Shown here: positions 24,710 through 51,658 of the stretch, one piece after another
How positions within the stretch are numbered: position 1 is the stretch's first letter
Layout of the letters: the number at the start of each line of letters is the position of its first letter
Origin: Pilasporangium apinafurcum
Lineage: Eukaryota; Oomycota; Peronosporomycetes; Pythiales; Pythiaceae
Assembly: GCA_001600495.1 (NCBI GenBank)
Contig: BCKE01000019.1
Coordinates: 477,717 to 541,716, forward strand
Length of the DNA: 64,000 bases
Reading direction: 5' to 3'
Made by a program: the position numbers and the translations under genes
The notes under the pieces: generated by a model
Told to the model about the DNA's origin: nothing
The model's database searches: none
Seen by the model: only the letters and a program-made list of their open reading frames with translations

Positions 24710-25075
24710 CTACGACTCACTTAATTCTCGTTGCAAGTACTCTGGTCTTGCTCGATTGTTGAAAAGTTCTGTCGTCACGCGCATAATATTCAGCGAAGCG
24801 TTCACGTCGCGATCCCAAAACGTCTTGCATTCACTGGATTCACAGTGCAAAACGAATTGAGATTCAATTGTACCATCGGGAACGCCGTTGACCATTTTCG
24901 GGAAGACTATCCTCAAAAGTTCAGCGTGACAGTGGAAACATCNCTTGCTTATACGAAACTCGTCGANGGAACGAACGGTAGTGCGCTTTGCNAGTTCCTT
25001 CTTGAGCGCTTTGACGCCATGGTGNCGAATTGTCGAATGANATACCAGTNAAAANATTNCCCATACTGGTTGCAA
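24710..25075 (-). pseudogene. C-terminal fragment of Fanzor/TnpB-like nuclease
   Basis: The minus-strand frame of about 122 codons ends with the zinc-ribbon and RuvC-III end of the TnpB/Fanzor superfamily. It shows an FRISK-x-CFHCH knuckle, a second Cys pair (HCESSECK), and then WDRDVNASLNI, where Asp is the third RuvC catalytic residue. A tail (NNRARPEYLQREL) of the sort seen in eukaryotic Fanzor proteins follows. Upstream of this, the RuvC-I Asp and RuvC-II Glu regions are not visible in any continuous frame. Nine ambiguous bases fall between 24943 and 25079. I read this as a decayed or 5'-truncated mobile element that once encoded an RNA-guided DNA endonuclease. The family call rests on the C-terminal motif alone. 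Confidence 0.6.
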
Positions 25076-26051
25076 AGANACACTTGCAGTTGGTTATACT
25101 GAAAATAAGATTTCGAGGTAACTCGTTTGTCAGGTTTTCTAGTCAGTATGACAGGTTTGGCCAGACGGACAAAATGGATACTAAATCTCATACGTTTTCC
25201 GTACGGACGGACAGCTTGCGAAAATAAGATGAAAGGGATGTGAGCCTCGTGACATGGTAGCCACAAATGCGCGAATGGGATGCACGTGAGCTAGCCGACT
25301 GTTTTTTCACGCTTGATGAGGGAGGATTTATGCATCAGCTATGTCTGTCGGGGTGTCTCTTTGATTAACATAGCGTATAAATAGCAGTGTTAGAGAAGCC
25401 GGAGCTCTCTCACATGCATGATGCTCGTCGTGGCACTCGCAATCAATCACTCCAACGAAGATCTTCTCGGTAAATCCAATGGAAGTAGTGCTGCAGTAGT
25501 CAAAATATGCTTTGGATGGTGGCGCTGTCATCGCTAACCTCAAAAATCGCTCATTGAACCATCACTTATCCACCCAGCAATAGACGAACAGTCTTCAGTG
25601 TATATCGACTACCCCTACTGTTCGTCCAATTTTGTGACCACGATCAAGTTCCGTGGAATTGTTTCTCATCAAAGTATGTAACGCCTTCAATCCTAATTCT
25701 CGTACCATTGAGGTATGGCATCAACCTCATCTTACCCAACCAGAAACCTGTCGAAACATGGCGACACTAGTCGCCTTCAATGGCCAGAACAAGATTGCGC
25801 TACTTTTGATGGAACAAGCCTGAGCATATTCTGAATGATCATTCTCCAACCCCGTGCAGCCATCCCCTATCGGATCTCAGTGTGTAATTCTGTCGACGTG
25901 AATGGAAGAAAAAATGTTCTCTTGCAAATTGACCCATTTGTTTTGAACAAGATATAACATAAGCGACATAGTCGCAAAACACTATCAGCAGTCTGATTTT
26001 CTGTTACCATTTGTCTGTACAAATATGTCCATTCAAGCCATAAGTCTCCCA
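25076..26051. other. Probable mobile-element debris, no intact gene
   Basis: This region continues upstream of the Fanzor-like fragment on the minus strand up to the 3' end of the nucleotidyltransferase gene. Short frames occur on both strands, for example minus 25328-25543. None carries recognisable motifs or lines up as a splice-able gene. It may hold the degraded 5' part of the same element. Confidence 0.35.
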
Positions 26052-36172: not shown

Positions 36173-37641
36173 TTAGACTTTTGTGCGACTGGACTGGATG
36201 ACCTCAAGAAGCTGACTATTGTAGTATTGCGCAGCCATCTGAAGCCGAGAGTACATCTTCAGTGATAACAGAATTGCGTTCACAATTAACAATTGAAATG
36301 ATAAGAAAGTACACTGAAAAGCAAATGCATTTTTCGTACCTGCTGGAGATCGTAAAGCTCCTTCTGATACTTGAGTTCCTCTTCTCGCACCTTGCGTTCC
36401 AGCTCTCGATTGGAATCTTTGATCGCATTGATTCGTTGCCGCGCATCCATATGTGTGGCTTCCAGGACCCGCAATTCTTCCTGTGCCTGTTTCAGCGCCG
36501 TGTCAGATGCCTGATCCTTTACACGCGACTCCTCTTTGTACCGTTCAAATTGCTCGCGCTTTTGTTCCACGAGTTTCTCCATGCGTTTCCGCTGGGCAAG
36601 GACGTCCATCGTTTTGCGTCGATTTTCTTCAATCTCTTTTTTTTGCATCTTGACTTGTTCTTTGGCTTCTCTGCATTTGTCAATATCTCGTTGCGTTTCT
36701 TCCATCAATTCAAGCAGCCGCTGAACGTCTCGTTCCGAACGCGCAAACGTATCCGAGTACGCCAGCAATTCCCGCTCACGACGGTCCATCGCACTGACTT
36801 CGACTTTGGAATCTTCCAACGACACAGCAATACCGGCGAGTTCCTTCTTGACACGCTCCGGCGACGTGACGATCTTGGTGTTTAGTCGCTCAATCTCTTT
36901 TTCGGCTTGAAGAATGTTGAATTGGATTGATGTGACTTCATCACGCAAGGCGTTATTCTTGGATTTCAATTCATTAGTTTCATGGCGCATCACCGCCTGT
37001 TTCTTATTGAGCACGTTGATCTCGTTCTCCAACTCTGTACATTCCTGCGAGATCTGCTCAATCGCTGGTGCCTCCGATTCCTGTTCTTGTAACAACTTTT
37101 GTAATTGCCGTTGCAGCGCCTCTTGCTCTTCCTGCAACGTCGTCTTCGTTTTGAGCAACTGGTCGGTCTCACGCGTCAACTCTGCAAACGCCGCGAGCCG
37201 CTCTTCCCTAAATTTGGCAAAATTGATCATCGCACTCAAATGGCGTCGCACGCGCTTTGGTGTGGGTGCAAGCACGTCTTTTGGTGAGAAATCGTAANCC
37301 CCACACGCCGTAAGCAGCTTGCTCGCTGTGCGGTAGAACCCCAAATCGGGAATCGATTCTTCGTGCAATTCCGGGAAACTAAGCGCACTGAGCCCAACGA
37401 ACGCAGGCTGGTTCATCTCTTCACGAGTGGTACCCATGATATTCTCAATAAACACCTCGAGGATCTTGCGGATAGCACCAACGTCACAGTTTCGGATTTC
37501 GTCTTCCGTGACTGGGATCTGCATCTCGCGGATGCATGCGAAAATCTCGCTCGGCTTGAGCAATGGGAAAGAGTAGACCTGTCCTCCAGTGGATCCTCCA
37601 GTGGGGATGCCACCACCTGCTCCAGTTGCGCCGTTCTTCAT
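36173..37641 (-). CDS. NUF2: Kinetochore protein NUF2
   Basis: Two exons (36340-37641 and 36173-36238) give 455 residues, close to human NUF2 at 464. The N-terminal 150 residues fit the NUF2 calponin-homology-like domain. They start with a Gly-rich leader, then YSFPLLKPSEIFACIREMQIP, and a motif with DLGFYRTASKLLTACG. The rest is a long heptad-repeat coiled coil. NUF2 pairs with NDC80 in the NDC80 complex to attach microtubules to kinetochores. The short last exon encodes 21 residues ending in SSRTKV. One ambiguous base at 37298 makes a single codon unknown, just after the LTACG motif, without breaking the frame. Confidence 0.88.
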
Positions 37642-38300
37642 GGCTGTATGAGCGTTGACGTAGAGAAAGAGACGCTTACTTCTCGGTTCCCTTTCGTTTA
37701 ATTTCCTTTTGGAATCGGGAAAATGGCGGCATTGGCGCGCATTGAGACATTACTGGATTAAAAAGAAATTTAAAATATCTCGATCAAGATTGGTAGAAAT
37801 GCGGATATAGATGGATATTTTGGCCAGTAATATGAGATAATGAGGCCGAAACATAGTCTCAACACTATACGATTAGCCAATAATATCATTTGTTTTCAAT
37901 ATTAGCTATATGAATGCGATATGCTCGATGTTGAAGGTCCTCTCGTTCCTCAAGTCATTTTGTTGGCTCATTGAAACGACACGGCACATTCACGACCTCA
38001 ACTATAAGGCTGAACTTGATGTTCGATGCCGTCTTTCAGAATGGACGTATATTGCGACTGCGTGTGGGCAGTTACATGATAACTGTGGACAAGTGCGGCC
38101 CAGTGTACGGACATTGTATGGATTTGGTGTGTGTAGGCAGGATGTTGCGCATAGAACAAGATCATCCAACATACGAGTTTATCCAGTTTGGGCATGGGAT
38201 GCAGTAAGCACAGTAGCAGAAAACCATGCATGAGCACGTGCCAGATCAACGGAAGAGGTTACCAACGAAATCCCTGCTCACAAACCCCCTAGAGTCGTAG
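37642..38300. other. Intergenic, no supported gene
   Basis: This 660-bp region lies upstream of NUF2. A plus-strand frame at 37971-38207 (78 codons, with RILRLRVGSYMITVD) is open but matches no family I know and could not be joined in phase to the CFAP44-like fragment that follows. The NUF2 promoter should lie near 37700. Confidence 0.4.
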
Positions 38301-38471: not shown

Positions 38472-39319
38472 AAATGAACAGATACAGTTTTGAATGCTCG
38501 GAAATATCTGATTCTGATTCCAATTCCCGCACCGAATTTCGTCGTGTAGAAGAGGTAGAAGGTAGAGAGTAGTAGGTCTTGCGCGATCGTATGCAGAATA
38601 GGTTGGATACAGCCACACACATGTCGACGAGGAACTCGCAACCTTCGTGAATAGCTAGGGTGTAAGGATGCATAACGTAAAGTTGGTCTCTATTATATGG
38701 TGGTGGCTCCAGTCTTGCCACTATTTGAAATTGGTTAAATACGGTGTGATGGTTACTGTATTTGGAAACAGGCTTTTTGCTTTTTGGAGACCGAGTCTGG
38801 CCGGTTCCTCTCTAGCGGGACCCCTACCCGTTGGATATTTTTCTACCGTACGCTTGATTGAGGAAGGCTCCAGCTGCCACAAAAACAATTTCTGGGTCGT
38901 GTGCAACACTAGTTTTTTGTCGCCTGAAATATATTCGCAGGAGGGATAGGGCGATTATATTTTTGCTTTTGTGCAGGGTGCGGGATAACCAGTGACGTCC
39001 TAGCCTTAATGCAGACAAACAGGGGAAGGGGTCCAATGTAGTTTACGTCCTTTTTATTTTCAGAAAGAAAGAAATCAATCGGTAATGAGGTTTTTTACAT
39101 CGAAAGGGTATTTTGACAGCAGATCGGTGGTCTTTAGCACAATCAGAGACATTTCATTGCCCACACATAGTAGAGAAGGAAGCAATCAGGAAAGGAAATC
39201 TCAAGTGCCGACGGCGATATCCGAACGGGCTCACCACCATCAGACAAACAAATTGAAAATCAACCGCAGGTTGATCAGCTTATTTAGCTGAATAGCCGAG
39301 AGACGTGTGTTCTGAAGTG
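38472..39319. other. Intergenic left flank of inverted repeat
   Basis: No gene is supported in this 850-bp stretch. It contains scattered short frames and directly abuts the start codon of the left AT-hook gene copy. The last bases before that ATG (TTCTGAAGTG) differ from those of the right copy (TTTGATAGTGA). Confidence 0.45.
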
Positions 39320-40303
39320 ATGATGCGGACGCGAGAACGGAGCAACAGTGGTCACAGTGAGATAGCAATGCGTTCGAAGCGACAGCGGATAACTGCGCCA
39401 ACGGAAGATGGGTCAAAGGATGATCAGCTGATGCATATGAACCCAAGTCTGATGACAGAACGTCAGCAATTAGCTTTTCTGCTGCGGACAACCGCACGGA
39501 CGGATGCGGCGACGTCCTCTGGTGCGGAGTCGGCTGCGCGGAGTGGAGGTTCCTCTTCCTCCTCGGAGGAAGAAGAAGAGGGAAAGATGGTTTCTCGTGT
39601 GTCGCGGAAAGCCAAGCGGATAGCATGTAAGTGATAGTGAAAATGATTAATATGTAGAGACTGCATGCTTATGCGTATATTTTGTGGGAATATAGACAGA
39701 GCGACTCGAGGTAGTAGTGCCAACAATCACGGTGGAGGCAAGACTTCTCCACGGAAAGCAGCGTCTACGCCTAGAAATACAAATACAGACACCAAGACTG
39801 GTGTTGTGCACCGTGGACGTGGTCGTCCACCCAAAAATGCGATCAGAATCCCAGCAGAAGGGAAGATTGGTCATCCAGTAGTCCCATCTCGAACATCTCC
39901 TCGATATAGCAAATTTAAAGAGGAGTCGACTACATCCACAAGTGCGAATACGTCGAAGCAACTAAAGGTGGCGACTTCTGCACCTACGGAACAGGTGAAA
40001 ACGGTAGAGAATGTATCGACCAGTGACGCGATTGCAGACGACTTAAACATGAGCGCCAAGATCAGTCCGTCAAGTACAAGTGATATTGTACACATGAATG
40101 TATCGTTCCAGGAAGAAGAAGCGGTGATAAACCAGCATCGTCATCATCATTTACCAGCAGCGAACGAATTTTGGAGTCTTCATTGTGCGTTATGCTGTGA
40201 CTCGCCGTGGGTGGCCGCATCGTCAGATGCGCTGTTTTTATGTCCGGCATGTGATCAGAAATATCCGACACAACAGGCTCTGGGTCGTGTATGTATGACA
40301 TGA
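39320..40303 (+). CDS. AT-hook and zinc-knuckle protein, left copy
   Basis: Two exons (39320-39626 and 39696-40303) join in frame to give 304 residues. The N-terminal part is charged and has a Ser-Glu-rich acidic patch (SGGSSSSSEEEEEGK). The second exon begins with a basic region holding a classic AT-hook core (RGRGRPPKN, about residues 141-149), which binds the minor groove of AT-rich DNA. The C-terminus has a four-cysteine pattern (HCALCCD ... LCPACDQKY), probably one zinc-binding knuckle. A chromatin-associated role is likely. The same gene is present again in opposite orientation 1.4 kb away. Two adjacent ATG codons open the frame. Because the repeat begins at this ATG, the two copies have entirely different upstream sequences, and only one may be expressed. 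Confidence 0.75.
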
Positions 40304-40316
40304 GGAAGAACATGGC
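39320..40316 (+). repeat. Left arm of 997-bp inverted repeat
   Basis: This arm is the reverse complement of 41687-42683 over its full length. The encoded proteins are identical residue for residue, and the intron and arm ends match where I compared bases. Outside the arm the sequences diverge immediately at both ends. The arm starts exactly at the first ATG of the gene and ends 13 bp after its stop codon. Confidence 0.9.
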
Positions 40317-40820
40317 GAATAAGCGGAAGCAATGCAAGGCAAGGTGAGTGGAAGAGCGGAAAAAGAAGAGCATTGGTATTTAATATTTTTCATTCGTTTA
40401 GTGGAGTATGTCCTATGAGCCAGAGAAAGAGATGGTGAGATACGATTATATATTGAAGCAATATAACACGTAGTGCAGTCGCTGAAGAGTTTGAAAGCGC
40501 AAGTCATGGTGATTCCAGTGTATGATTGCTCTTTACACCTTCCGAATCTCGCAAGGTTCATGCGGTACATAATGGAAGTGAGCGACTTGAGTCCCTCAAA
40601 TAACCGGTGCTTCCATAAAGCTATACATAGCCGTGCAATACAGCGCATGAGTGAGCTAATAATAATCTTTGTGAGGGTAGATTCTTACAGAAATATTAAC
40701 AAATTATTGCTAAAAATAGGTTGGTGGGTGATGAGCTTCTCCGTTAAGTACGGTTTGTTATAATATTCCCAACTCTCGCTCTCTCATCTGGACGAACTTT
40801 TCGAACGCAAGTCAGCAAGC
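40317..40820. other. Left part of inverted-repeat spacer
   Basis: This 504-bp stretch runs between the left AT-hook gene and the SNARE gene. It has no supported coding region. The last 60 bases contain CT-rich sequence with TCTCATCTGG, a weak initiator-like match for the SNARE gene. Confidence 0.4.
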
Positions 40821-41523
40821 ATGTCGACGCGCGGATTCCCTTCGAGTAAGCCCTCGAATTATGCCAAGATTGGGAGCGACGTGAGTTTCCCGATGAATAT
40901 TGAGCAGCTTCGACACGGTGCTGACCCAGCTGACTGTTTCTTGTATAGCCTACAGATAGTGGTGAGGATGACTATATTCAGAGGGAGCGGCAACTGCAGC
41001 AGGTAACGTTACTCTTAAATCTCTTCATTCACTATGAAGGTGAAGAACAAGAACTGACGAAGATGATGATATGTTTTGCAGCTAGAACGACAGAAGCAGG
41101 ATGAGAGTTTAGACGAGCTCCACACTGCCGTAAAGCGGCTTGGCGACATGAGTCTTTCTATCAGCACAGAGCTCGATTCACACAACAAGTACAAACGTCG
41201 TTTTGTCTCAACTGAAATGGTGTAGGAGGTTGAATGCTCATAATGATGGTGCGGTATGTAGGATGCTGGATGAACTGAATGACGACACAGACAAAGCTTC
41301 AGAAGCACTGCAGTTAGTAACCAAGAAGACAAAAGAACTCATCGAACAATCAGGTACGTCCATAATAATAAAACAAATTACGTGTTTTTCTTGGTTTATC
41401 TCTTTGACGCAAACGATCCTGTGATTGTTTGTTGCGGCTATAGGCGGCATGAAGAACTTCGTAATCATCATTGTGCTTGTTTTGGTGTTGCTGTTGCTCA
41501 CATACTTGGTGATAATGACCTGA
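40821..41523 (+). CDS. Small Qc-type SNARE, five exons
   Basis: Exons 40821-40880, 40949-41002, 41082-41188, 41262-41353 and 41444-41523 join in frame to give 130 residues. After a short N-terminus there is a SNARE coiled coil (residues about 39-100). It starts LERQKQDESLDELHTAV and continues SLSISTELDSHNKMLDEL, then DKASEALQLVTKKTKEL. A C-terminal membrane anchor follows (FVIIIVLVLVLLLLTYLVIM) with almost nothing after it, so this is a tail-anchored protein. The pattern is closest to Qc-SNAREs such as syntaxin 8, syntaxin 6 or Bet1, which act in ER-Golgi or endosomal fusion. The residue at the expected ionic zero layer is His72 instead of Gln. The gene is intact and sits wholly inside the spacer of the inverted repeat. 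All four introns are 68-90 bp with GT..AG ends. Confidence 0.82.
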
Positions 41524-41686
41524 TCGCCTGCTCCACGCATCGTTTTCGCTGCATCTCTTCTTCGAAGGGATTATAACTATTCGCCTCAATATATATAGAC
41601 TCTTCCACTGACGCAAACACCTCGATCCACCGATTATAAATATTCAGTCTTGCTTGTCTCCACTCACTGTCTCTTTCGTCTTGATT

Positions 41687-42683
41687 GCCATGTTCTTCCT
41701 CATGTCATACATACACGACCCAGAGCCTGTTGTGTCGGATATTTCTGATCACATGCCGGACATAAAAACAGCGCATCTGACGATGCGGCCACCCACGGCG
41801 AGTCACAGCATAACGCACAATGAAGACTCCAAAATTCGTTCGCTGCTGGTAAATGATGATGACGATGCTGGTTTATCACCGCTTCTTCTTCCTGGAACGA
41901 TACATTCATGTGTACAATATCACTTGTACTTGACGGACTGATCTTGGCGCTCATGTTTAAGTCGTCTGCAATCGCGTCACTGGTCGATACATTCTCTACC
42001 GTTTTCACCTGTTCCGTAGGTGCAGAAGTCGCCACCTTTAGTTGCTTCGACGTATTCGCACTTGTGGATGTAGTCGACTCCTCTTTAAATTTGCTATATC
42101 GAGGAGATGTTCGAGATGGGACTACTGGATGACCAATCTTCCCTTCTGCTGGGATTCTGATCGCATTTTTGGGTGGACGACCACGTCCACGGTGCACAAC
42201 ACCAGTCTTGGTGTCTGTATTTGTATTTCTAGGCGTAGACGCTGCTTTCCGTGGAGAAGTCTTGCCTCCACCGTGATTGTTGGCACTACTACCTCGAGTC
42301 GCTCTGTCTATATTCCCACAAAATATACGCATAAGCATGCAGTCTCTACATATTAATCATTTTCACTATCACTTACATGCTATCCGCTTGGCTTTCCGCG
42401 ACACACGAGAAACCATCTTTCCCTCTTCTTCTTCCTCCGAGGAGGAAGAGGAACCTCCACTCCGCGCAGCCGACTCCGCACCAGAGGACGTCGCCGCATC
42501 CGTCCGTGCGGTTGTCCGCAGCAGAAAAGCTAATTGCTGACGTTCTGTCATCAGACTTGGGTTCATATGCATCAGCTGATCATCCTTTGACCCATCTTCC
42601 GTTGGCGCAGTTATCCGCTGTCGCTTCGAACGCATTGCTATCTCACTGTGACCACTGTTGCTCCGTTCTCGCGTCCGCATCAT
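41687..42683 (-). repeat. Right arm of 997-bp inverted repeat
   Basis: This arm pairs with 39320-40316 such that coordinates sum to 82003. The spacer between the arms is 1,370 bp. Both arm genes point toward the spacer. Confidence 0.9.
41700..42683 (-). CDS. AT-hook and zinc-knuckle protein, right copy
   Basis: This is the second, inverted copy of the gene at 39320-40303. Its exons are 42377-42683 and 42307-41700, and the 304-residue translation is the same. The AT-hook, acidic serine patch and C-terminal cysteine knuckle are all intact, and no disabling change is visible. Upstream on the minus strand the sequence is unrelated to that of the left copy. It ends in TTTGATAG before the start, which could be a splice acceptor, so this copy may have an additional upstream exon. 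The 3' end lies 176 bp beyond the stop of the SNARE gene, and the two are convergent. Confidence 0.72.
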
Positions 42684-44615
42684 TCACTATCAAAGTTGAG
42701 AGTTTGTGTAGGAACTAAATCCACACCACGACGTGTGGAAAACCGAGAAAGAGGCGGCGCTTTCGCTTAGGTAGATAGAGAATCGCGTCGGGCGAGATGT
42801 GGTTGAGTCTGGCGTTGCACTTGCGGTTGATTGCTTTTCTTTTACTACAGAGGTCATCCATCGCACACACCCTGTGTTGCATTCGGGACAGAAGCGACAC
42901 ATACTTTCGAGGTTAGGGCCACAAAACCTCGGAAAAATGGCAAGGTTTTTTTTACTTCCAATCACAGCAGAAAAGTTATAACCCAATAAATTACCCCTAC
43001 TCTTACACATTCGCGATTTTATTTGCAAGTTTTGATGGGTTTGCGTTTGAAGTTTTAGAGGCTCGTATCATTAGTGATGCAGACTCGTCATTCCAAGCAT
43101 AAGCGTATAACCAGTAAATATCAGTTATGTATCTTGAACAGACACGAACTTCTCGAAATCACAACTGATTAGTCCAAAATTCAAACCAACACCATCGATT
43201 GTGTGTAGTCAAATCGACAGTCTCATATTTCATGAACCAACTTCTAGATGTGTAGACGATCACTTGGTTTATAAATGACCAAGACGAGTCCATACAAACG
43301 TATTGGACCCGTCAACTAACATTGATGTATCAATTATATGGTATCTTAGCAGTACCGAAGGATTTTTTGTGTGTTCGGGGGTACCATTTTCGATGCAATG
43401 ATGAGATATCTCAGACACAAATTTTGCCAGATTCCGTTTACAGAGTGGAACATCATGAACTAAAATTATCTGCACCCAGTAAACGCTTTCTTCCACTTAA
43501 CTGCCACCGTTGCAGCACTTTACTACATGCGACACTATTGCTCTATCTTTATTGACTGAGGCAGAATCCCACCGGTGGGAATAATGGGGGATAGAAGCCA
43601 ATCTCTATCCCCATTTTTCCTACTTGTAGGATGCATTTTGACGTATTTTTTTAAGTGAGCAGCTCACATCGATAGAAACAGCAACTTGCTTCGAATTCTC
43701 TGTAACGAACTTTTTTCTTCTCTATCTTTCTTTTCAAGAACAGATACGAGGCGATGACAATACATACCCGAGCAGATCAGATGCATGGAAAATCAAAGTG
43801 ATTGTCCAGAAAGCACGGCGTGATAGTATCGGTGCAAAAGGAAGGAAAAAATCACACTAGAAGCGTCTTTCTCAAGAATGACCACTTACTCATCGAGTCC
43901 AGGCGTCAGAGATGCCTACTCCGTGGTTGTCTAGTCTTAATTAGTTTTTGCTAGTCAAACTGGACTCAAACAAAAAAAACAGGAGGTCCTCCCTAGGGTA
44001 CTTTCGGTATTCCATATGACCCTTGATGCGCACAAGACTCTTGCATGTACATGTGAGGACATCGTTGCAGATCGCGTCATGTTTCTTTGAAAAATAGAAA
44101 GTGAAAAAGTCCAGACATTCAAAGAAAGAATCCAGATAACTATTGGGTACAGGAGATTTATATTGATTTTCCATGGAAGACACATCCTTTGAAGTGGCTC
44201 TCTTATACACCTCTTCATAAGGATCGCAAGAGCACTCACTTCGCCGCTATCTCATCATCTCGATGGTGTGGATCCAATATTTGCATGGCCGAAAACACAC
44301 GAAAGCGACAAGAAAAAAAATAAAACGTATTTACAAGTTGTTTGCTGTCGTTCTTTGTGAAAAAGTTGGTTGTCTTGTTCCTATAATGACGGAGATATCG
44401 TACTTTATAAAGAGGGGAGCTTCTGGTGATTTTTCCGTTCAGAACATGGATGCGTCAGTAACTGGTAAAACAATTGGGCAGCACCGATACTGCTGGTCGC
44501 TGCCCCACGGGTGGAAAGAACGCACCACGCAACAAACAGCAAAAATACAAGAAGGCGAACCGACACGGCATGTCCATCAGTGTGTAATGCAACATCAGTA
44601 CGTCCAGGTAAATGA
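42684..44615. other. Long intergenic region with a Cys-rich reading
   Basis: No full gene is supported in this 1.9-kb region. On the minus strand, 42715-42900 encodes MCRFCPECNT in one frame and continues in another as VCAMDDLCSKRK and NRKCNARLN. This is a cysteine-rich reading broken by a frame change. It could be a spliced 5' exon, a decayed zinc-finger gene or transposase debris. The rest is AT-rich with only short frames. Confidence 0.35.
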
Positions 44616-48275: not shown

Positions 48276-49671
48276 ATGAAGATCTTCCGTACACTCGCCT
48301 TCGTGGCTGCCTTTGTGGGGGCCCAAGTTGCGGCTCAAGAGAATGCCGAAGAAACGAAGCAACTCTTCCACGTTACGGTCCCCAAGGTTGTCTTGGATGT
48401 GGCACTCCAGCAATTCGGGGACGAATTGGACATCTGGAAGGTCGACGCTGTTGATGGCGGCAAGGTGCAGGCCGATATTTACGCCACGGACACCACGATC
48501 AATAAATTTTACGCCGGTTTCCCAGCATCTGCCAAAGAAACTATCTCGACTGCTTCCTCGGTCATTTCGATCGAACGGGATTCAGTGGACACGCAGGCGC
48601 TGCTACAAGAAGAAGCCGCGACCTTGGCGACCTGCACGACCAGCACGCGTCGCCATTTGGAGGAACTCGCCACCACGACGTACGTAAACAACGCCTTTTT
48701 TGACTGCTGGCGCACTGCAACAGAGGTGTTTGCGTTCTTGGACGCGTTGGTCACTGAAAATCCGAACTATATTTCCAAGATCGCCTCCGTGTCCACCACG
48801 ATCGAAGGACGATCAATTCCGGCGTACAAGCTATCGACCGGTAGCTCTACGTCGAAAAAAGCCATTTACATCCAAGGCTTGATCCACGCACGTGAGTGGC
48901 ATGCAGGCAGTACGACTTTCTATGCTATCGCTGCGTTATTGGATGGACTTCGCGCCTCAGATTCGACCATCACCACGGTAAGCTTTTCGTTCTTCGACTT
49001 TTTATCCTTACCACACTTTTGGCTAACTATCTCAAAATGTGTAGCTCTTCAACTCGTACGACTTTTACTTTGTACCGATCGTGAACCTCGACGGCTTCCT
49101 CTACACGTTCAGCAATAACCGCCTATGGCGCAAGAACCGTCGTCGCATCTCTGGATCTACATATGGTGTTGACCTCAATCGCAACTTTGGTCCAGCGCAA
49201 TACTTTGGCAAAGGTGGCGAGAGCCCTTCGTCCGAAACTTATCCAGGCTCGAAACTGCTGAGTGAACCTGAGACCGCGGGGATCTTTGCTTTCGTCAAAT
49301 CGCTTCCACTTGCGGGTGCCTTGGACATCCACGCCTACTCGGGGCTGGTGCTGCGTCCATATGGTGTTCAATACGCGGAAGCCGCTGCCCCTTATGGTGC
49401 TAAGCTCAAGACGTTGGGTGATAGCGTGAAGAGCGCTATTCAAGTGGGCAACACGGCCACGTACACGAGCCAAACCGCCGCACAGTTGTACTTGGCGTAC
49501 GGCACATTCATGGACTCGGTCTTTATTGAACTCAATAAGACAGCATCGATCAGCTTTGAGATGGAAGGCAACAACTTTGTGCAAGATGTGAGTGTGATCC
49601 GTCCTGGTGGACTACACATCTTCCAGGGCATCTTGCAATTCGTCAAGGGCTTGAAGGCTTATTACAGTTAG
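48276..49671 (+). CDS. Secreted zinc carboxypeptidase (M14), copy 1
   Basis: Two exons (48276-48977 and 49045-49671) encode 442 residues. A signal peptide (MKIFRTLAFVAAFVGAQVAA) precedes a propeptide of about 100 residues. The M14A catalytic domain then shows the metal motif HAREW (His and Glu), the substrate-binding DLNRNF, and a third zinc ligand in LDIHAYSG. The general-base Glu lies in SFEMEG near the C-terminus. All key residues of carboxypeptidase A/B are therefore present. It should be exported and trim C-terminal residues from peptides, either for nutrition or on host proteins. It has a strong promoter-like element upstream and forms a tandem pair with the next gene, which shares the same intron after the ATTACG-type Thr codon. 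Confidence 0.9.
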
Positions 49672-50189: not shown

Positions 50190-51658
50190 ATGAATATGCA
50201 GACCATTATCCACTGCATCCTCGGATTGCTGATAGTTACCATCGCCACCGTCACTGCTTCTCAGGAGGTGAAGCAGCTCTTCCACATCATCCTTCCACAG
50301 CCGCTTTTCAGGAATGCACTGCTGCAATTTGGAGATGAATGGGATATTTGGCGAGTCCGACCCATTCCTGACACCAAAGAACTTGTCCGTGTCGATATTT
50401 ACACCACAGAGATGTCAATTCGCCAGTTTCGCGAAGATATTGGCTCACTTCAGGAATTGAAAATCGAACGAAATGCTGTCAGTACTGCACGCTTGTTGCA
50501 AGAAAGCGAGACTACGTTTGTGTTATGTAGTGAAAAGACACGACTGCACCTGGATGAGCTCGCATCGACAAAGTACGTGGACAACGCGTTCTTTGACTGC
50601 TGGCGCACAGCCGATGAGATCTATGCGTTCTTGAACAAACTAGTCAAGGAGAATTCGGGCATATTTGCCAAGATTGACTCCATTGCCACAAGTATAGAAG
50701 GCAAGTAATTTCCGAACCATGTTTATCGATTCAATTTTACTGACGCTATGTACTGGCTTAAATTTTATGAATGCCAGGCCGAGCCATTCCAGCGTACAAG
50801 ATCTCGACGGGACCAGGCAGGAAAGTCATTTACGTCCAGGGACTGCTTCACGCGCGTGAGTGGCATGCTGGAAGCACAACATTCTATGCTATCGCTGCAC
50901 TTCTCGATGGATTTCGATGCAAGGACCCCGAAATCACTCAAGTGCGTTATCTCCCAGACAGCCCGTTCTATACGTCTCTATATTGACGATGGTTATTGTT
51001 CACTTTGCCTGGAACTCTGTAGCTGCTCACACTATATGACTGGTACTTCGTTCCGATCGTCAACATCGACGGTTTTCGATTCACCTTCAAAGGCGATCGT
51101 CTTTGGCGCAAGAACCGACACAAGATTAATGTGGATGGGAGAATACGTTTCGGTGTCGATCTGAATCGCAATTTCGGCCCAGCAGAGTACTTTGCGCTCT
51201 CTAAAGGTGGCCCTCGGTCGGACACGTACCCTGGATCATCCCCACTCAGTGAACCAGAGACTTTTGGATTGTTCCAATGGCTTCAAACGCTCCCATTGGC
51301 TGGCGCACTGGACATTCATGCTTTTGCAGGGTATGTATTACGTCCACTAGGTAATCAGAAGGCTGGTGTTCTTGCTCTGTATGATACAAAGCTCAAGACA
51401 CTCGGGGATAACGTCAAAAAAGCCATTGAAGTCAGCAACAATGCGACCTATACGAGCCAATCTGCTTCTGAGCTTTATCTGTCGTACGGATCGTTTATGG
51501 ATGCTGTCTTCCTCCAGATGAACCATACCGCTACACTTACGTTTGAAATGGAAGGCGAGGGGTTTGTTCTTCCTGAGACTGTCATTCGCCCTGGGGGGAA
51601 GCACGTCTTCCAGGGTATCCTCCAATTCGCCAAGGAATTGCCAGCATATTATAGCTAA
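50190..51658 (+). CDS. Secreted zinc carboxypeptidase (M14), copy 2
   Basis: Three exons (50190-50700, 50778-50941 and 51023-51658) encode 436 residues. The product aligns along its length with the gene upstream. It shares the signal peptide (MNMQTIIHCILGLLIVTIATVTA), KQLFH start, DNAFFDCWRTADEIYAF, HAREWHAGSTTFYAIAALLDG, DLNRNFGPAEYF, LDIHAFAG and FEMEG. Zinc ligands and catalytic Glu are all conserved. The second intron matches that of copy 1. The first intron is absent from copy 1 and has a GC donor (GAAG then GCAAGT) with an ordinary AG acceptor; only this choice restores the EGRAIPAYK sequence. The pair arose by tandem duplication, with intron gain or loss since. Confidence 0.9.

What the first reader, a model, noticed from the sequence alone, without database searches (positions are those of the whole stretch)
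39320..42683. Two 997-bp inverted arms with identical genes flank an intact SNARE gene
The AT-hook protein gene is present twice in opposite orientation, with identical translation of both exons, separated by a 1,370-bp spacer. A perfect or near-perfect inverted repeat this long is unstable and usually recent or kept by gene conversion. Read-through from either arm would make an RNA with a 1-kb double-stranded stem, a potential small-RNA source, with the SNARE in its loop.
Basis: seen in the sequence. Interest (0 to 1): 0.72.

Follow-up and report, generated by a model that had tools for sequence, protein, structure and literature searches.

The report
Inverted gene pair kept identical
In what looks like a water mould, two mirror-image copies of one gene flank a third gene and match letter for letter almost exactly from start codon to stop codon; the likeliest cause is that the copies overwrite each other, a known process.

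Summary
Window 39320-40316(+) and 41687-42683(-) are 997 bp without a difference, 1,370 bp apart. Each arm runs from the ATG of a two-exon, 304-aa protein with an AT-hook core to 13 bp past its stop. Beyond that there is no alignable homology except 4 bp after a 1-bp indel. The spacer holds an open SNARE-like gene. No other copy of the surrounding 5 kb was found. The genome looks like an oomycete's.

It is not alone. In 312 kb of this contig, 4 of 18 listed duplicate pairs lie under 10 kb apart. Three are inverted with long identical tracts; the direct one is 65% identical. One inverted pair (DGAT2-like) is a conversion mosaic: 69% identical overall, then a 483-column run without a difference. 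In six inverted sets, three from one family and picked for likeness, homology ends within 13 bp of the stop codon.

Best explanation: an older inverted duplication homogenised by gene conversion within the coding unit, as in Drosophila Amy and Hsp70. Open rivals: a recent coding-only duplication, and consensus smoothing, suggested by mirrored Ns in other pairs. The hairpin small-RNA idea is geometrically possible, untested.

The parts
39320..40316 (+). left arm: 997 bp, identical to the reverse complement of 41687-42683
39320..39626 (+). gene of the protein with the AT-hook core, left copy, exon 1
   Evidence: best of six frames by codon score
39627..39695 (+). inferred 69-bp intron (GTAAGT...ATATAG), identical in both copies
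39696..40303 (+). left copy, exon 2 with stop TGA; 304-aa protein in all
40317..41686 (.). spacer, 1,370 bp; no other copy found in the genome
40821..41523 (+). SNARE-like gene (Qc type by its nearest matches), exons 40821-40880, 40949-41002, 41082-41188, 41262-41353, 41444-41523; 130 aa
   Evidence: exon borders placed by eye
41687..42683 (-). right arm: identical inverted copy; exon 1 42377-42683, intron 42308-42376, exon 2 41700-42307
   Evidence: exon coordinates mirrored from the left copy
39316..39319 (+). 4 bp upstream of the left ATG that still match the right copy after a 1-bp indel; homology ends here
36286..37749 (-). left neighbour: Nuf2 kinetochore gene (context)

Best explanation
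The two genes are an older tail-to-tail inverted duplication that encloses a SNARE-like gene, kept identical by interlocus gene conversion. The arms can pair by folding back or between sister chromatids, and one copy is repaired from the other. Flanking DNA diverged until no homology was left there, so conversion can act only inside the block that selection keeps alignable: the coding unit from ATG to stop with its short intron. Each copy has its own upstream and downstream sequence, so one protein could be made from two separately controlled loci. Shown: identity, limits, no other copy of flanks or spacer found, and the same anatomy plus a conversion mosaic in other pairs of this genome. Inferred: the age of this duplication, the conversion step in this pair, and expression of both copies.
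For: 997 bp without a difference, intron included, starting 4 bp or less before the ATG and ending 13 bp after the stop, with unalignable flanks. On the same contig a DGAT2-like inverted pair (Pfam DAGAT) is homologous from ATG to stop; before the tract it is identical at 598 of 871 columns, exons and introns together, and then has a 483-column run without a difference (N columns skipped), with an inferred intron inside, ending in the stop codon; 0 of 2000 shuffles reach that run (the shuffled alignment included flanks, which favours this result). With Ns read as letters the longest exact run there is 328 bp. A GY-rich inverted pair is identical over 735 bp with one mirrored N, ending 1 bp after its stop. 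Elicitin-family inverted pairs on C8 (580 bp, ends 1 bp after the stop) and C19 (749-bp run with two mirrored Ns, ends 2 bp after the stop), and a C24 trio, show the same 3' limit. In one search three of the four listed pairs under 10 kb apart are inverted with long identical tracts; the direct one (M14 carboxypeptidases) is 64.6% with no identical run over 17 bp. Elicitin hits within 20 kb: equal score in 3 of 12 inverted and 0 of 63 direct pairs; counting two C24 pairs by their sequenced likeness gives 4 of 12 and 1 of 63 (p=0.002). [quoted passage not shown]
Against: This pair has no diverged remnant and no outgroup, and no third copy stronger than a weak match (37%, E=0.09), so conversion is not demonstrated for it. 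A duplication that covered only the ORF would look the same (PMC3966223, passages). Consensus smoothing may add to the identity (mirrored Ns in other pairs). Orientation is not decisive: two C24 elicitin copies in direct orientation are 98% identical and two on C19 are 91.6%, while many inverted pairs are not homogenised: elicitin pairs at 70-81% on C24 and 73% on C8, and two inverted pairs at 67%, 10.6 and 13.1 kb apart. CAP (10 hits), trypsin (19) and P450 (34) show no neighbouring pair of equal score. A genome-wide C. elegans study cited in that review links conversion to same orientation, with distance as a possible confounder. With adjacent hits only the contrast is 2 of 9 against 0 of 18, p=0.10, and pairs within a cluster are not independent.
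Confidence: 0.62

Rival explanations
1. A very recent inverted duplication whose breakpoints happened to fall at the ends of the coding sequence; no conversion is needed.
For: Zero differences in 997 bp, intron included. Only two strong matches in the genome and no diverged tract. ORF-limited duplications are described in C. elegans (PMC3966223, passages).
Against: Both ends lie within 4 and 13 bp of the CDS ends. If a 3' edge fell at random within 200 bp after the stop, an edge within 13 bp has a chance of about 0.07 for one pair and about 1e-7 for six (a crude null, and three of the six sets are elicitins). Five other inverted sets show the same 3' limit, one of them clearly old.
Confidence: 0.18
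2. Assembly effect: two real but slightly different copies were given one pooled consensus, or the second arm was misplaced altogether.
For: Single Ns sit at mirrored positions in other inverted pairs: 128803/138350, 163989/168761, 217698/236562 and 218209/236051 on C19, and three pairs of Ns on C24. In C19:1-200000, 5 of 7 Ns lie in the 2.2% of bases that are arms; one of the five, 168818, has no mirrored partner. C19:220992-221500 reads all N, a scaffold gap or a withheld stretch. In the C24 trio the resolved differences lie only near the block ends.
Against: The AT-hook arms hold no N. The four junctions to unique sequence all differ. Copies that differ by more are kept apart elsewhere (DGAT2). 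An assembler has no reason to end arms at stop codons.
Confidence: 0.14
3. The inverted pair works as a hairpin or antisense source: read-through from the left gene or the SNARE-like gene into the right arm makes double-stranded RNA that is cut into small RNAs and damps expression of the pair (and perhaps of the SNARE-like gene).
For: Geometry: the SNARE-like stop at 41523 lies 163 bp from the convergent right arm. In P. infestans, inverted and tandem repeats give the most small RNA per megabase, and inverted repeats favour 18-23 nt (PMC3804510, passages). Two open Piwi-domain genes are in this genome.
Against: No transcript or small-RNA data were available. Both copies keep an open frame, which a pure silencing source does not need. 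It does not explain why arm ends match CDS ends. It does not exclude conversion.
Confidence: 0.1
4. A composite mobile element with long terminal inverted repeats that carries a SNARE-like cargo.
For: Long perfect inverted repeats around a cargo gene.
Against: No other copy of the 5 kb was found (that search skips very common words). Spacer frames beside the SNARE-like gene gave no transposase in Pfam (3 frames). No target-site duplication is visible at 39310-39319 against 42684-42693. The arms are themselves a spliced protein gene.
Confidence: 0.01

Closest known systems
Drosophila Amy-p/Amy-d and Hsp70Aa/Ab palindromic gene pairs (ectopic gene conversion; PMC3924832, passages)
   Same: Linked inverted copies with near-identical coding sequence; in Amy the flanks evolve independently.
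   Different: No between-species or polymorphism data here; the genome looks like an oomycete's; an unrelated SNARE-like gene sits between the copies.
C. elegans hsp16-1/hsp16-48 inverted modules 416 bp apart (PMC3966223, passages)
   Same: Identical inverted gene modules with a short unique spacer; conversion or recent duplication debated.
   Different: Single-gene arms here, limited to the CDS; the spacer carries a gene.
Small-RNA-generating inverted repeats of Phytophthora, e.g. the 714-nt pin-IR2758 (PMC3804510, passages)
   Same: Long inverted repeat in an oomycete-type genome with Piwi genes.
   Different: No small-RNA evidence here; the arms code for protein; the spacer is 1,370 bp and holds a gene.

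Membership tests
Palindromic gene pair under coding-limited gene conversion | two linked paralogues in opposite orientation | tested here: met
Palindromic gene pair under coding-limited gene conversion | near-identity confined to the coding unit, flanks diverged | tested here: met
Palindromic gene pair under coding-limited gene conversion | mosaic of identical and diverged tracts | tested here: inconclusive
   absent in this pair, which is fully identical; present in the DGAT2-like pair on the same contig
Palindromic gene pair under coding-limited gene conversion | copies closer to each other than to orthologues, or shared polymorphism | not testable with these tools
   no population data; the tool states that this genome has no relatives here
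Inverted-repeat small-RNA locus | long near-perfect inverted repeat | tested here: met
Inverted-repeat small-RNA locus | transcript crossing both arms and 21-25 nt reads | not testable with these tools
   no RNA data
Terminal-inverted-repeat transposon | several copies in the genome | tested here: not met
   no other copy found
Terminal-inverted-repeat transposon | target-site duplication | tested here: not met
   flanks read by eye
AT-hook protein | Pfam AT_hook above its cut-off | tested here: not met
   11.6 bits against 17.4; the GRGRPPK core is present (motif recalled), so 'with an AT-hook core' only
SNARE (Qc type) | SNARE motif plus C-terminal membrane segment | tested here: inconclusive
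   PDB matches to SNAP-29 and syntaxin 8 and a hydrophobic C-terminus by eye, but Pfam SNARE below cut-off; that these matches mean Qc is recalled

The most novel reading that the evidence does not exclude
This genome carries a whole class of inverted gene pairs, perhaps one per 100 kb (three in the 312 kb searched), kept identical by conversion up to the stop codon, while most direct copies diverge. Orientation would then help decide which gene families evolve in concert, and pairs like this one would supply one protein from two separately controlled promoters.
Probability: 0.22. Interest if true: 0.5.

Novelty: new member of a known kind. Interest (0 to 1): 0.32.

Why it matters
If the pattern is general, the orientation of duplicates becomes a testable predictor of concerted evolution in oomycetes, whose gene families are much studied. 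It also warns that mirror-image genes in this assembly may carry pooled consensus bases, so variant calls there need long reads. Four searches of the paper library for such pairs in oomycetes (17 papers, 15 listed; 53 papers, 12 listed; 19 papers, 15 listed; 1 paper) listed no title on the subject; only the listings were seen, and most subscription papers are not in that library.

Tried and rejected
Mobile element: set aside, no other copy and no target-site duplication. Foldback or missing-adapter read artefact: set aside, because the spacer is long and not palindromic and all four junctions differ. Telomere motif TTTAGGG x4: no hit, uninformative. 18S search to name the organism: the machine gave no usable answer; not repeated. 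'136 contigs' with 'oomycete' in papers: 3 papers listed, none that by its title fits this assembly. Family census for equal-score neighbours: sugar transporters not usable (9 of 55 candidates scored; one equal-score pair on different contigs); CAP, trypsin and P450 negative.

Full report
What is there. The window is the last 64 kb of contig C19 (541,716 bp) of a 36.5-Mb, 136-contig genome. That genome has 50 elicitin-domain matches, and none of the 14 control genomes has one, so I take it as an oomycete (that elicitins mark oomycetes is recalled). The inverted repeat is exact: 997 bp, 39320-40316 against 41687-42683, with a 1,370-bp spacer. Each arm is one gene: exon 1 39320-39626, an inferred 69-bp intron, exon 2 to the TGA at 40303, giving 304 aa with a GRGRPPK AT-hook core and a Cys-rich C-terminus. 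The frame has the best codon score of six for both exons (0.216 and 0.14 bits per codon). Pfam gives only sub-threshold hits (AT_hook 11.6 bits, a treble-clef zinc finger 13.3 bits). The only other match to this protein in the genome is weak (37% identity, E=0.09).

The arms' limits. Homology starts 4 bp before the ATG (with a 1-bp indel) and ends 13 bp after the stop. Local alignment of 1.5 kb of outer flank and 0.7 kb of inner flank gives only 14- and 18-column matches. A genome search with the 5 kb around the repeat finds only itself and its two arms. The SNARE-like gene in the spacer is open over five exons, 130 aa, nearest in the PDB to SNAP-29 and syntaxin 8. Its stop lies 163 bp from the right arm. 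Other spacer frames gave no Pfam family above its cut-off.

The surroundings changed the picture. I compared 311,716 bp of C19 (1-200000 and 430001-541716) with itself, each part separately. Of 18 listed pairs, 4 lie under 10 kb apart: three inverted (this one; a GY-rich frame, 735 bp identical, 8.3 kb apart; a DGAT2-like gene, 2.6 kb apart) and one direct (M14 carboxypeptidases in this window, 64.6%, longest identical run 17). Just beyond 10 kb there are two inverted pairs at 67%. The DGAT2-like pair is the key. Its copies are homologous from ATG to stop. Before the tract they are identical at 598 of 871 columns, exons and introns together. The last part holds a 483-column run without a difference, N columns skipped, with an inferred intron inside and its end in the stop codon; 0 of 2000 shuffles reach it. 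I read that as a gene-conversion tract between inverted copies.

Elicitin hits pointed to more sets: C8 (580 bp, 100%), C19 217569/236691 (755 bp, 99.9%, 17.6 kb apart) and a C24 trio (97.8-98.5%). They were picked for equal scores and opposite strands, so they illustrate and do not measure a rate. In the six sets homology ends +13, +1, -1 (inside the stop codon), +1 and +2 bp from the stop, and at the TAA in the C24 trio, whose exact run ends about 11 bp earlier.

Orientation. Elicitin hits within 20 kb have equal scores in 3 of 12 inverted and 0 of 63 direct pairs (p=0.003). The score is an imperfect stand-in: shared Ns lower two C24 scores alike, and two direct C24 copies are 98% identical. 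With those counted as near-identical, it is 4 of 12 against 1 of 63 (p=0.002). With adjacent hits only, it is 2 of 9 against 0 of 18 (p=0.10). CAP, trypsin and P450 gave no equal-score neighbours. Near-identical direct copies may also be missing because assemblers merge them or recombination removes them; I cannot separate these.

How far to trust 'identical'. Single Ns occur at mirrored positions in arms of other pairs, and 5 of 7 Ns in C19:1-200000 lie in 2.2% of the sequence, four of them mirrored. The N cluster at window 24943-25079 lies in a repeat with 39 other scored matches of 90 candidates. I infer that Ns mark sites where reads of several copies were pooled. This argues that two copies exist, but also that the last fraction of a percent of identity could be smoothed. 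The AT-hook arms have no N.

Mechanism. I favour an older inverted duplication homogenised by gene conversion inside the coding unit, as described for palindromic Drosophila Amy and Hsp70 genes (PMC3924832, passages). For this pair the conversion step is inferred. A recent ORF-limited duplication stays possible (PMC3966223, passages). The hairpin idea fits the geometry, the small-RNA output of P. infestans inverted repeats (PMC3804510, passages) and two open Piwi genes, but rests on no RNA data.

Verdict. What lifts it above ordinary is the repeated anatomy, mirror-image copies whose identity stops at the stop codon, which a whole-genome self-comparison could test at once.

Noticed in passing
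window 24713-25093 (-); C19:136690-137520: TnpB/Fanzor-like zinc-ribbon frames (Pfam Cas12f1-like_TNB: 26.7 bits, just above the 26.3 cut-off; the second 22.9 bits, below it). The window copy lies in a ~540-bp repeat with 39 other scored matches at 91-97% (40 of 90 candidates scored).
   Followed up: partly
C19:128703-129437 / 137716-138450: Identical inverted copies of a GY-rich frame with a signal-peptide-like start (by eye), 8.3 kb apart, with a TnpB/Fanzor-like frame and a 1,579-codon frame between them.
   Followed up: partly
C19:163604-165070 / 167648-169146: DGAT2-like inverted pair with a gene-conversion mosaic, flanking a RabGAP-TBC frame.
   Followed up: yes
C17:200587-213533: Trypsin-domain hits in mirror order with near-equal scores (176.1/176.2; 171.8/172.2), perhaps a larger palindrome.
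   Followed up: no
window 48806-49670 and 50776-51657: Direct tandem pair of M14 carboxypeptidase genes, 65% identical, longest identical run 17 bp.
   Followed up: yes
C19 and C24 arms: Single Ns at mirrored positions in inverted arms, probably pooled consensus sites of two copies.
   Followed up: partly
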